Source: Thraustochytrium sp. TN22
Lineage: Eukaryota; Sar; Bigyra; Thraustochytrida; Thraustochytriidae
DNA length: 64,000 nt
Direction: 5' to 3'
Assembly: GCA_013306675.1 (NCBI GenBank)
Contig: JABLUY010000025.1
Location: 154,983 to 218,982, forward strand
Shown: piece after piece, positions 11,860 to 22,518 of the stretch
Position numbering within the stretch: the stretch's first letter is position 1
Layout of the letters: each line of letters starts with the position of its first letter
Notes under the pieces: model-generated
What the model saw: the letters and a program-made list of their open reading frames with translations, nothing else
What the model was told of the DNA's origin: nothing
The model's database searches: none
Made by a program: the position numbers and the translations under genes

Positions 11860-14120
11860 ATGTCGGACGTCGCCGTCAGCGTGCGCCGCAGCCTGCGCCA
11901 CAGCCTGCGCCACAGCCTCGAGAGGCGGCGCACCGCGCGCTACCTCGCGCAGGAGCGCAAGATCATCGACTACCGCAGCGTCAGCATGCGCTTGCTCGAG
12001 CGCATGCTCGAGCGCGTGCTGGACGAGTCGCTCGCGCCGGGAGTCCAGCTCTTCGTCGCGGCGCGCGACATCAACGAGCACGTCAAGGAAGGCGCCACGA
12101 TCGCGCTCCTCTCACGCGCCGAGAACAGCACCACCATCCTTGGACGACAGAGTCCGCTTCACGGAGGGCGACGACGCCCGCCCCAAGCCGCGCGAGGAGT
12201 GGTTCACCGAGGACATCGCCGAGCACGTGGTGCTGCCCGCCACGATGCCCCTCCGCACGAACCAGTTCTACATCGACACCATCGCCGAAACGAGCGACAT
12301 CGGCGAGCCCTTCCAGGGCCAGCCAGGCCCGCCGCTGCAGCTTCGCAGACCTCGTCGGCGCGCTCCGGGCCAGGTTCGAAGACGTGCCCCAGCAAGAGCA
12401 GTTCGTCTGGCTCGATCTCTTCTGCGCCAACCAGCCGCTCCTCACCAAGCCAGACCAGGATCTTCCCGCGGAGGTCATCGACGCGCGCAACCGCTTCCTG
12501 ACGCATGGCCTCCACTTTGCCATCGCGCAGTTCACCCGCGGCACCCTCGTCTTCTTCGACCGCTGGGACGAGCCCGCGCCGCTGAAGCGCGCCTGGTGCG
12601 TCTGGGAGTTCTACGGGGCGCTTCGCGCCGGCGTGCCACTCGACGTCGTCCACGCGCCTGGCCAGGAATGGGCTTTCTTCGACCAGTTGCTCGAGGACTA
12701 TGGTCAAATCGCGGTCCTCATGGCCGACAAGATGGACGCGCGCAAAGCTCAGTGCTGGAAGCCCGAGGACAAGGCCATGATCGACGAGGCGGTGGCCAGC
12801 CACCTCGCTGGCGGCTACACGGACGTCAACATGGCCATCCAGGGCCGCCAGCGCGCCTGGCTCCTCGAGATGGGGCTGGACATAGTCAATGAGCTGAGGC
12901 GAGACGGCGGCGACACGGAGCCGGCCGATCTTGCAAGAGCGCTCTGCCAGCTCGCCAACTTGCACTATGCGCAGGGCCGCTACGCCGAGGCGCTCCCGCT
13001 CTACGAGGAGGCGCTCGAGATCACCAAGGAAGCCCTCGGGGACCGGCACGCCTCAGTGGCCAGAACGCTCCACGAAATCGCCAATTTGCACGCTGAGCAG
13101 GGCCGCTACGCCGAGGCGCTCCCGCTCTACGAGGAGGCGCTCGAGATCTACAAGGAAGCCCTCGGGGACCGGCACGCCTACGTGGCCGCCACGCTCCACG
13201 CGATCGCCATGTTGCACTATGAGCAGGGCCGCTACGCCGAGGCGCTCCCGCTCTACGAGGAGGCGCTCGAGATCTACAAGGAAGCCCTCGGGGACCGGCA
13301 CGCCTACGTGGCCGCCACGCTCCACGCGATCGCCATGTTGCACTATGAGCAGGGCCGCTACGCCGAGGCGCTCCCGCTCTACGAGGAGGCGCTCGAGATC
13401 TGGAAGGAAGCCCTCGGGGACCGGCACGCCGACGTGGCCGCCACGCTCCACCAGATCGCCGTCTTGCACGCTGAGCAGGGCCGCTACGCCGAGGCGCTCC
13501 CGCTCTACGAGGAGGCGCTCGAGATCTACAAGGAAGCCCTTGGGGACCGGCACGCTTATGTGGCCACCACGCTCCACCAAATCGCCAACTTGCACGCTGA
13601 CCAGGGCCGCTACGCCGAGGCGCTCCCGCTCTGGGAGGAGGCGCTCGAGATCACGAAGGAAGCCCTCGGGGACCGGCACGCCGACGTGGCCACCACGCTC
13701 TGCAGTATCGCCAACGTGCTTTACGTGCAGGGCCGCTACGCCGAGGCGCTCCCGCTCTACGAGGAGGGGCTCGAGATCAGGAAGGAAGCCCTCGGGGACC
13801 GGCACGCCTCAGTGGCCACCACGCTCCACAACATCGCCAAGTTGCACGCTGCACAGGGCCGCTACGCCGAGGCGCTCCCGCTCTACGAGGAGGCGCTCGA
13901 GATCAGGAAGGAAGCCCTCGGGGACCGGCACGCCGATGTGGCCACCACGCTCCACCAAATCGCCAACTTGCACTTACAGCAGGGCCGCTACGCCGAGGCG
14001 CTCCCGCTCTACGAGGAGGCGTTCGAGATCTACAAGGAAGCCCTTGGACCAGAGCATCCGGACACGCGAACCGCGCAAGAAAATCTGGCGGCTTGCCGCG
14101 AAGAACTCGAGGCCGCCTAG
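11860..14120 (+). CDS. TPR (kinesin-light-chain-type) protein with TIR-like N-terminal domain; N-terminal part frameshifted
   Basis: The C-terminal 380 residues are at least nine TPR units of 42 residues with the core QGRYAEALPLYEEALEI, close to kinesin-light-chain TPRs, which bind protein partners. The preceding domain (about 12340-12890) has the motifs FVWLDLFCANQ, LVFFDRWDEPAPLKRAWCVWEF and a later DMG/DVN region. These resemble the cytosolic TIR-like N-terminal domains of TPR/STAND proteins in stramenopiles and haptophytes. The protein-like start MSDVAVSVRRS (11860) is in frame 1. The protein-like reading moves to frame 2 near 12138 (CTTGG where CTGG would rejoin) and to frame 3 near 12335. 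Frame 3 by itself is open from an ATG at 11811, so an automatic caller would choose that start, but its first 170 residues are Arg/Pro/His-rich shadow. The gene is either recently broken or carries two single-base assembly errors. Confidence 0.7.
12972..14105 (+). repeat. Nine near-identical 126-bp TPR-coding units
   Basis: The string CAGGGCCGCTACGCCGAGG recurs every 126 bases at 12972, 13098, 13224, 13350, 13476, 13602, 13728, 13854 and 13980. Units two to four are nearly identical even at silent sites, which points to recent expansion or gene conversion. The repeat keeps other frames and the opposite strand open, producing long false ORFs. Confidence 0.95.
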
Positions 14121-14555
14121 AGCCTTCGGAAGCCATGAAATGAGCATTGTTTGCCTTGTGATCAGTGCGGCTTGCGAGGTCCTCGTCACTCGTGAACGCA
14201 TTGCAGTTGACGCTCTTACATTCCAATCGATCTGATGCCTCAGCTCCGGCAAGTGCGCGGCCGCGCCTGCTCAGGACGCACGCCGACCGATGGAGACGGG
14301 CTCTGATACTTTGTTTGCCGTGACCCGGCCCAGTAGAAATCATGTTACTGCACAAGAACGAGAAGAGCACGAAGATTGCTTGCATTGCTGCCCCCATGAC
14401 GTCGCATGACAGTGGTGGCTGGCTCGCTAGCTCGTCGTGCCCGCTCTGCCGGGGCGGGCTGTGCAGGAACTTGTTGCTGCGCTTCGCGCCTCCTGCCGAG
14501 AGAGAAAACATCACAAGACAACCAAAACCGCCAGCGGAGCGGCGCCGAAGCCGCC
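14121..14555. other. Intergenic region before the SF2 helicase
   Basis: This stretch of about 435 bases, less GC-rich than the surrounding genes, holds the 3' end of the TPR gene and the helicase promoter. An in-frame ATG at 14406 extends the helicase ORF, but the encoded residues are not conserved-looking. No separate gene seen. Confidence 0.35.
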
Positions 14556-21132: not shown

Positions 21133-22518
21133 ATGGCCTGCGCGGCGCTGCGGCGCGGCGGCGGCGCGCGCAGGGCGCTCGCCGCGGCCGCGAGCCCGAG
21201 GTGGACGGCCACGAGCGCGACGCCGTGGAGCGCGCGGGCGACGGCGGCCAGGCCCGGCGCGGAGGGGCTGCGCAGGCCGCGCGTGCAGAGGCAGGGCTGG
21301 GCCGCGGCAGGCAGGGTGCGGTGGCTGAGCGACGAGACGCCCGCGGCGCGCAGCAGCAGCCTGAGCAGCGTGCAGGAGCTGCACAGGGAGGTGACGGGCA
21401 TGGTGCAGTCGGTGCAGGCCAAGGTGGAGCGGCGCGGCGTGCGCGAGCGCCTGGCGGAGCTGACCAAGGAGCTGGCGCGAGAGGACTTGTGGGACAACCC
21501 GGACCGCGCCGGCCGCCTGAGCCGCGAGCACGCGGCGCTCGCGGACACGGTCAGCAAGCTCGACGGCTTCTCCACCTCCATCGAGAACGCGCTCGAGATG
21601 GCCGCGCTCGCGGACGAGGAGGGCGAGACGCAGGTCGTGGGCGACTGCCTCGAAGACCTGGAGGAGATTCACAAGCAGCTGCAGCGCTTCCACCTCAGCA
21701 TGCTCTTGGACCACCCGGCCGACAAGCTCGGCTGCATGTTCGAGCTTGCCGCCGGCGCCGGCGGCACCGAGTCCTGCGACTGGACCGAGATGCTCCTGGA
21801 AATGTACCGCCGCTGGGCGGAGCAGTCCGGCTACTCGGCCACGGTCGTGGAGACCTCGCCCGGCACCGAGGCCGGCTTGCGCTCCGCCACTTTGCACGTG
21901 CGCGGGCTCAACGCGTATGGCTGGGCCAAGGCCGAGACCGGCGTGCACCGCATGGTGCGCATCTCCGAGTACGACACCAACGGCCGCCGCCAGACCTGCT
22001 TTGCGCAGGTCAGCGTGCTGCCGCTCATGGAGGAGGACGACGAGGAGAACGCCAAGATGATCGAGATCGACCCGGCCGACCTCAAGATCGACACCTACCG
22101 CGCCTCTGGCGCCGGCGGCCAGCACGTCAACACCACCGAGTCCGCCGTGCGCATCACGCACTTGCCCACTGGCGTCATTGCGCAGTCCCAGGCGGAGCGA
22201 TCTCAGCACCGCAACAAGGCCACCGCCATGTCCACGCTGCGCTCGCGCCTGCTCGAGCGCCGCCTGCAGGCCGAGCGCGACGCGCGACGCGCGCAGCGCA
22301 GCTCTCTTGGCGACAACGCCTGGGGCAACCAGATCCGCTCCTACGTGCTGCACCCGTACAAGCTCGTCAAGGACCATCGCACCAACCACGAGACGCCCCA
22401 GGCGCTCGCCGTGCTCCGCGGCGAGCCGGACTTTCTCACCCCCTTTATGGAGGCCTACCTCGCGCAGACGGCCACCGACGACGACGTCGCCGCGCCCGTC
22501 GGGTCAGCCGAGCCCTGA
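21133..22518 (+). CDS. Organellar class I peptide chain release factor, RF2-like, with altered anticodon tripeptide
   Basis: The full RF2 architecture is present: an N-terminal helical domain, then domain 2 and the GGQ loop (SGAGGQHVNTTESAVRITH; GGQ at residues 328-330) that triggers peptidyl-tRNA hydrolysis, and the RF2-type end GNQIRSYVLHPYKLVKDHRT. The first 80 residues are Arg/Ala-rich with few acids and end in RVRWLSDE, a typical mitochondrial presequence; hence mitochondrial. The stop-codon-reading tripeptide of RF2, SPF, is replaced: the aligned segment reads VRISEYDTNGRRQT, so S278-E279-Y280. All other positions are well conserved, so this is not a decayed gene. The ATG at 21133 gives 461 residues; the same context (GGATGG) recurs at neighbouring starts. 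The gene diverges from BSD-YjjX and precedes the kinesin on the same strand. Confidence 0.85.
   Translation: MACAALRRGGGARRALAAAASPRWTATSATPWSARATAARPGAEGLRRPRVQRQGWAAAGRVRWLSDETPAARSSSLSSVQELHREVTGMVQSVQAKVERRGVRERLAELTKELAREDLWDNPDRAGRLSREHAALADTVSKLDGFSTSIENALEMAALADEEGETQVVGDCLEDLEEIHKQLQRFHLSMLLDHPADKLGCMFELAAGAGGTESCDWTEMLLEMYRRWAEQSGYSATVVETSPGTEAGLRSATLHVRGLNAYGWAKAETGVHRMVRISEYDTNGRRQTCFAQVSVLPLMEEDDEENAKMIEIDPADLKIDTYRASGAGGQHVNTTESAVRITHLPTGVIAQSQAERSQHRNKATAMSTLRSRLLERRLQAERDARRAQRSSLGDNAWGNQIRSYVLHPYKLVKDHRTNHETPQALAVLRGEPDFLTPFMEAYLAQTATDDDVAAPVGSAEP

What the first reader, a model, noticed from the sequence alone, without database searches (positions are those of the whole stretch)
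21133..22518. Mitochondrial RF2-like release factor whose SPF stop-codon tripeptide reads SEY
Seen: an otherwise well-conserved RF2 with intact GGQ loop and mitochondrial-type leader has S-E-Y (bases 21964-21972) where bacterial and organellar RF2 have S-P-F, the residues that read UGA/UAA. Known: the thraustochytrid mitochondrial code (NCBI table 23) uses UUA as a stop, which no normal release factor reads. I recall a divergent RF2 paralogue being discussed for Labyrinthulea but cannot verify it here. Inference: this may be the factor that reads UUA, with Glu and Tyr changing second- and third-base recognition.
Basis: partly seen in the sequence, partly recalled or inferred. Interest (0 to 1): 0.85.

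Follow-up and report, generated by a model that had tools for sequence, protein, structure and literature searches.

The report
Mitochondrial release factor for UUA stops
A marine protist's mitochondria use the leucine codon UUA as a stop sign, and this gene makes the release factor that most likely reads it; the idea is already published, but a group of bacteria that has lost its UUA-reading tRNA turns out to carry the same kind of changes.

Summary
In detail: 21133-22518 encodes an RF2 with intact GGQ and S-E-Y at 21964-21972. The genome shows one RF2, one RF1 with an ordinary decoding loop and one ArfB/ICT1-like protein. Its mitochondrial contigs support UUA as a stop: 15 of 28 Pfam-matched genes end in TTA, full-length domains sit in TTA-free frames, and the leucine tRNAs are CAA and UAG. 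This RF2 is the best candidate reader of UUA, besides UGA and UAA. That idea is in print for Labyrinthulea, but assigned to the second Ser (Ser204), not to SPF. All 11 RF2s of this clade change both the SPF proline and Ser204; 172 of 172 other listed RF2s read keep both. Tyr and Gln occur in ordinary bacteria and the proline's replacement varies (E, L, V, A), so "Glu and Tyr read UUA" is weak. New here: a bacterial clade (Solirubrobacteraceae) has SK[Y/F] plus Ser204->Ala, no detected tRNA-Leu(UAA), and, in the one genome sampled deeply, UUA used neither as sense nor as stop. This may be a UUA reassignment halted midway. No release activity was tested.

The parts
21133..22518 (+). nuclear gene for mitochondrial RF2 (mtRF2a), 461 aa as read from this ATG; true start not settled
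   Evidence: open frame continues upstream
21442..22011 (+). PCRF domain (residues 104-293)
   Evidence: Pfam PF03462, E 4.9e-49
21799..21801 (+). Glu223 where the 221 comparison RF2s have Arg; the genome's RF1 has Ser at the matching place
21964..21972 (+). S-E-Y in place of S-P-F (E. coli RF2 residues 205-207 by alignment)
21991..21993 (+). Gln287 in place of the His that intercalates between codon bases 2 and 3 (His202, T. thermophilus)
21997..21999 (+). Cys289 in place of Ser204 (T. thermophilus numbering), the residue already proposed for UUA reading
22054..22380 (+). RF-1 (peptidyl hydrolase) domain (residues 308-416)
   Evidence: Pfam PF00472, E 4.7e-40
22114..22122 (+). GGQ catalytic motif (residues 328-330), intact

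Best explanation
The gene encodes the mitochondrial RF2 of a thraustochytrid-like protist whose mitochondria use UUA as their commonest stop. Most likely this RF2 reads UUA besides UGA and UAA through a widened reading of the second base. The SPF serine and the threonine of the H-T-S triplet are kept; the rigid SPF proline and the Ser204 hydroxyl are lost, which loosens the pocket so that U is accepted at position 2 as well as A and G, while A stays required at position 3. The factor would then read U(A/G/U)A and spare UUG (Leu), UGG (Trp) and UCA (Ser), all used as sense here. Shown: sequence, one RF2 found, ordinary RF1 loop, UUA as a mitochondrial stop, no mitochondrial gene for a tRNA reading UUA, and the tie between the two substitutions and this clade. 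Inferred: import into mitochondria, binding to UUA, and the part of each residue.
For: One RF2, one RF1 and one ArfB-like gene in six-frame search of 37.9 Mb; RF1 loop ordinary. 28 Pfam-matched mitochondrial genes end in TTA 15, TAA 11, TGA 1, TAG 1. Domains of cox1, cox3, nad1, nad3, nad4L, nad5, cob fit almost whole in TTA-free frames; the nad3 and nad4L models end at the residue before TTA. TTA occurs 258 and 114 times in the other two frames of 19 genes. Leu tRNAs CAA and UAG only, Trp CCA. The 11 clade members form one clade with the loop left out (100/99) and 11 of 11 lack Pro and Ser204; 172 of 172 other RF2s read have both. In a scan of all columns only Arg223, Pro279 and Ser289 were constant in 221 comparison RF2s and lost in 11 of 11, and Arg223 is lost in RF1 as well. 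PMC12574857 reports Ser204 changes in UUA-stop peDinoflagellate plastids too.
Against: No release assay. The mitochondrial contigs also lack Arg and Thr tRNA genes, so tRNAs are probably imported and a UUA-reading Leu tRNA could be too. In 12 of 13 TTA-ending genes on C318 a standard stop follows within 15 codons, so reading UUA as Leu would lengthen most proteins little. Bacteria with Ser204->Ala and SPF (G171, G194, G181, G180, G101) keep tRNA-Leu(UAA), so that change alone does not abolish UUA as Leu. Four of eight bacteria with a non-Pro residue keep HTS, so loss of Pro alone has other causes. UGA and UAG as stops rest on one gene each.
Confidence: 0.78

Rival explanations
1. UUA is unassigned: no tRNA reads it, the ribosome stalls there, and the ArfB/ICT1-like rescue protein releases the peptide. 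The RF2 changes only reflect that UUA no longer has to be rejected.
For: An ArfB-like gene exists (C2, NCBIfam ArfB 116 bits over the cut-off of 100). In the bacterial clade similar RF2 changes occur where UUA is not used as a stop.
Against: UUA is the commonest stop (15 of 28), which fits poorly with slow rescue; ArfB-type proteins act on ribosomes with an empty mRNA channel (recalled); ArfB-like proteins also exist where UUA is sense.
Confidence: 0.12
2. The substitutions tune RF2 to a divergent mitoribosome or are drift; UUA is read by RF1 or an unfound factor.
For: Arg223 is lost in both RF1 and RF2 of this genome, so part of the change is not codon-specific.
Against: RF1 keeps its PAT and HTS motifs; Pro and Ser204 lie in the stop-codon loop, and a bacterial clade without detected tRNA-Leu(UAA) changed the same two.
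Confidence: 0.07
3. The terminal UUA is changed at RNA level (editing or processing creates a standard stop).
For: None found; no RNA data were available.
Against: TTA is absent from full-length domain frames and no tRNA gene reads it, which processing at gene ends does not predict.
Confidence: 0.03

Closest known systems
Labyrinthulean mtRF2a with changed Ser204 (Zihala, Salamonova, Elias 2020; seen only through passages of PMC12574857)
   Same: Same clade, same gene, Ser204 changed (Cys here), UUA as mitochondrial stop, proposed UUA reader.
   Different: The passages name only Ser204; the invariant loss of the SPF proline is not mentioned in the text of PMC12574857 ('SPF' 0 occurrences). Whether the 2020 paper shows it is unknown to me.
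peDinoflagellate plastid pRF2 (PMC12574857, passages)
   Same: RF2 type, Ser204 to Cys or Ala, UUA used as a stop.
   Different: Plastid factor, further substitutions and a two-residue deletion, UCA also a stop; here UCA is an internal codon 107 times.
mtRF1a of Marsupiomonadales and Pseudoscourfieldia (PMC12574857, passages)
   Same: Organellar release factor with altered codon-binding region where UUA has become a stop.
   Different: RF1 type and UUG is a stop as well; here RF1 is ordinary and UUG is Leu.
RF2 of a Solirubrobacteraceae/Patulibacter clade
   Same: SPF proline lost (SKY/SKF), Ser204->Ala, Gln at 202; no tRNA-Leu(UAA) detected.
   Different: Bacterial; UUA not used as a stop in the sequence examined.

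Membership tests
Class-I release factor RF2 (prfB) | prfB profile over curated cut-off | tested here: met
   418 bits, cut-off 370
Class-I release factor RF2 (prfB) | GGQ catalytic motif | tested here: met
   residues 328-330
Class-I release factor RF2 (prfB) | SP(F/Y) codon-recognition motif | tested here: not met
   SEY; 172 of 172 other RF2s read have SPF or SPY. Membership by profile and tree stands; the motif marks a variant.
Labyrinthulean mtRF2a (UUA-reading proposal) | Ser204 replaced by Ala, Gly or Cys | tested here: met
   Cys289; His202 of T. thermophilus is the His of H-T-S, so Ser204 is its Ser
Labyrinthulean mtRF2a (UUA-reading proposal) | groups with labyrinthulean RF2 | tested here: met
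Labyrinthulean mtRF2a (UUA-reading proposal) | mitochondrial targeting | not tested
   no targeting predictor at hand
Labyrinthulean mtRF2a (UUA-reading proposal) | peptide release at UUA | not testable with these tools
   needs an assay
Mitochondrial genetic code, NCBI table 23 | TTA is a stop and not a sense codon | tested here: met
   15 of 28 genes end in TTA; full-length domains in TTA-free frames; no tRNA-Leu(UAA) gene
Mitochondrial genetic code, NCBI table 23 | TGA and TAG remain stops | tested here: inconclusive
   one gene each (cox1 TGA, rpl14 TAG); frames were cut at TGA and TAG, so their absence inside is by construction; tRNA-Trp is CCA

The most novel reading that the evidence does not exclude
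Losing the SPF proline together with the Ser204 hydroxyl is a recurrent, convergent way for RF2 to stop rejecting UUA, and it is under way in bacteria. In one Solirubrobacteraceae clade RF2 first became Ser204->Ala, then tRNA-Leu(UAA) was lost and UUA vanished from genes, and then the proline changed to Lys: UUA is there an unassigned codon that RF2 can already terminate, a natural halfway state of the sense-to-stop change that labyrinthulean mitochondria completed. I know of no bacterial sense-to-stop change (recalled), and the 250,000-genome Codetta screen says it cannot detect new stop codons (PMC8629427, passage).
Probability: 0.4. Interest if true: 0.85.

Novelty: new member of a known kind. 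Interest (0 to 1): 0.62.

Why it matters
How a sense codon becomes a stop is hard to explain, because a release factor must learn it while a tRNA may still read it. Here factor, code and missing tRNA gene are seen in one genome, and comparison narrows the candidates to two residues that can be tested by point changes in laboratory E. coli RF2. The bacterial clade would offer a living intermediate and a warning that present code screens, which do not look for new stops, can miss such changes.

Tried and rejected
Rejected: (a) an extra RF2 paralogue for UUA: one RF2 found. (b) Tyr280 and Gln287 as determinants: SPY in 17 and QTS in 4 of 172 other RF2s, and Gln in 57 of 59 RF2s read in the bacterial family, 43 of them with SPF and Ser204. 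(c) Glu279 as a specific base reader: E, L, V, A in the clade and K in bacteria. (d) Arg223 loss as a UUA determinant: RF1 of the same genome has lost it too. (e) UUA as a working stop in the bacterial clade: in 587 kb of G001 0 of 447 TTA triplets end a coding stretch against 36 of 447 TAA (with a stricter threshold 0 against 21); in 90 kb from G007, G003 and G008, partly overlapping loci, 0 of 43 against 2 of 43 (9 of 20 fetched G007 contigs, all under 2 kb, left out). (f) Ser204->Ala alone as proof of UUA reading: 5 of 15 such bacteria keep tRNA-Leu(UAA).

Led nowhere: a profile search with the 11 gave no further labyrinthulean-type RF2 among its 120 listed hits. G025 (260 kb) holds too few TTA (29 in all frames) to say anything. 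Paper searches listed no held paper on labyrinthulean RF2 other than PMC12574857, and none on RF2 and UUA in Solirubrobacter. The 2020 primary paper is not held.

Full report
What is there. The frame 21133-22518 encodes a 461-residue RF2 (NCBIfam prfB 418 bits, cut-off 370; Pfam PCRF and RF-1). S-E-Y stands at 21964-21972 and GGQ at 22114-22122. The alignment to E. coli RF2 (1gqe) puts S-E-Y on residues 205-207. The loop reads RISEYDTNGRRQTCF where oomycetes read, for example, RISPFDSAGRRHTSF. Four positions differ, not two: Pro->Glu, Phe->Tyr, His->Gln, and the Ser after His-Thr ->Cys. PMC5681627 (passage) calls the intercalating His 202 in T. thermophilus numbering, which makes that Ser number 204.

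The genome. The assembly has 37.9 Mb in 453 contigs. A six-frame search found three places with an RF-1 domain: this RF2, an RF1 (C375) and an ArfB-like protein (C2). The RF1 loop is ordinary, RVPATESSGRVHTS.

The mitochondrial code. Contigs C318 (22.4 kb) and C363 (14.2 kb, with both rRNAs) are mitochondrial. I counted 28 frames with a Pfam match: 19 of 26 examined on C318 and 9 of 9 on C363 (S3 and L6 fall below Pfam's cut-off). They end in TTA 15, TAA 11, TGA 1 (cox1), TAG 1 (rpl14). Frames were cut at TTA, so the absence of internal TTA in 6579 codons is by construction. The evidence is that nearly whole domains (COX1 1-436/436, NADHdh 2-297/298, COX3 1-257/258) fit in TTA-free frames, while TTA occurs 258 and 114 times in the other two frames of 19 genes. 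If TTA:TTG followed the A:G ratio of the Gln, Lys and Glu codons, 243 TTG with no TTA would have a probability of 1.8e-123. The NAD3 and NAD4L models end at the last residue before TTA. Leucine tRNAs are CAA and UAG, tryptophan CCA, among 21 tRNA genes. Arg and Thr tRNAs are missing too, so import is likely and the missing Leu tRNA gene is support, not proof. In 12 of 13 TTA-ending genes on C318 a standard stop follows within 15 codons, in nad5 after 68.

Relatives. A profile search added none among its 120. With the reading loop left out (except in P0033, where the script did not find it) the 11 form one clade (100/99) apart from nine oomycete-type RF2s. SPF becomes SEY in 7 and SEH, SLH, SVY, SAY in one each; HTS becomes QTC in 8, HTC in 2, HTA in 1. 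Of 172 other RF2s read, 172 keep Pro and Ser204; 17 have SPY and 4 have QTS. Tyr and Gln are therefore ordinary variants; PMC4530459 itself writes the motif SP(F/Y) (passage). A scan of all columns found three that are constant in 221 comparison RF2s and lost in 11 of 11: Arg223, Pro279 and Ser289 (rows with a changed Ser204 had been taken out of the comparison). Arg223 is also lost in this genome's RF1 (Ser; Arg in E. coli RF1), so it more likely answers to the mitoribosome than to UUA.

What is published. PMC12574857 (passages) reports that labyrinthulean mtRF2a has Ser204 changed to Ala, Gly or Cys and that Zihala et al. 2020 (not held) proposed this as the cause of UUA reading; peDinoflagellate plastid RF2 has Ser204 changed to Cys or Ala, with UUA as a stop.

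A bacterial parallel. A scan of the 84,980-species collection for RF2 with a residue other than Pro at this place (residues with codons beginning with C are not covered) gave 8 loci. Four have Thr, Ala, Ser and Ser there and keep HTS. The other four, titled Solirubrobacteraceae (3) and Patulibacter (1), read SKY or SKF with QTA. Each of these genomes has one RF2 over the family cut-off. In the family RF2 was read in 59 of 61 genomes searched: 43 SPF/QTS, 2 SPF/HTS, 10 SPF/QTA, 3 SKY/QTA, 1 SKF/QTA. Covariance searches with anticodons read by ARAGORN found tRNA-Leu(UAA) in 43 of 45 genomes with Ser204, but in 4 of 14 with Ala204 (Fisher 9e-7, not corrected for kinship). In seven of the ten without it (G025, G170, G089, G188, G106, G001, G007) the four other leucine tRNAs (CAG, GAG, UAG, CAA) were found; G164, G008 and G003, and the two Ser204 genomes without it (G153, G160), also lack others, so their assemblies are incomplete. 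G025 and G089 lie on contigs of 4.4 and 5.5 Mb. Twelve genomes of the class outside the family all have tRNA-Leu(UAA), G101 with Ala204 included. A tree of 65 RF2s needs three changes between Ser204 and Ala204, with 13 of the 15 Ala204 rows in one clade (97/97). The four SK genomes sit inside it, and none of them shows tRNA-Leu(UAA). That order (Ala204, then tRNA loss, then Pro->Lys) is my inference; the base of the clade is unresolved.

Is UUA a stop there? In 587 kb of G001, TTA and TAA each occur 447 times over all frames. TAA ends a coding stretch 36 times and TTA never; TTA is never internal, where 3 to 9 cases would be expected from the rates of CTA, GTA or TTG. The method is noisy: TAA, TAG and TGA score as internal 2, 4 and 1 times. 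UUA is thus close to unused, neither sense nor stop. In G171, which keeps the tRNA, 1 of 112 TTA is internal and 1 end-like. Losing this tRNA is not far-fetched: in Streptomyces coelicolor the UUA tRNA is reported as unnecessary for growth (abstract of PMC2000904 in a listing). PMC8629427 (passage) describes a comparable unassigned codon (CGG) in other bacteria as a possible intermediate.

How it most likely works. SPF is described as serving the first and second stop-codon positions (passage of PMC6881298) and His202 as lying between bases two and three (PMC5681627). Losing a rigid proline in the loop and the hydroxyl next to the threonine would loosen base 2 and leave base 3 strict. That fits stops with A, G or U at position 2 and A at position 3, with UUG and UCA kept as sense. 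The varied replacements (E, L, V, A; K in bacteria) argue for relaxation rather than for a new specific contact. This is inference; no structure was modelled.

Verdict. New points are the loss of the proline in every clade member seen, the demotion of Tyr and Gln, and a bacterial clade with the same pair of changes and no detected tRNA-Leu(UAA).

Noticed in passing
L011, L013, L017, L018; RF2 genes in L022-L025: Bacterial RF2 with SKY or SKF and QTA, in genomes without a detected tRNA-Leu(UAA) and, where sampled, with UUA practically unused.
   Followed up: yes
L012, L014, L015, L016: Four other bacteria (Peptococcaceae, Deltaproteobacteria, Ruminococcus, Clostridia by record title) have STF, SAF, SSF and SSF but an ordinary HTS; their codes were not examined.
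   Followed up: no
L056 (genome G101): RF2 with SPF and HTA (Ser204->Ala) outside the family, with tRNA-Leu(UAA) retained.
   Followed up: partly
window 21799-21801; L002 (RF1): An Arg of domain 2, present in E. coli RF1 and RF2, is lost in both RF1 (Ser) and RF2 (Glu) of this genome; perhaps a change in the mitoribosome.
   Followed up: partly
C318 about 791-1938 (L005) and C363 about 12382-14188 (L009-L010): Near-identical unidentified frames lie at one end of both mitochondrial contigs, as if a repeat had split the assembly.
   Followed up: no
L271 (genome G153): ARAGORN reads a leucine tRNA with anticodon AAG in a bacterial genome.
   Followed up: no
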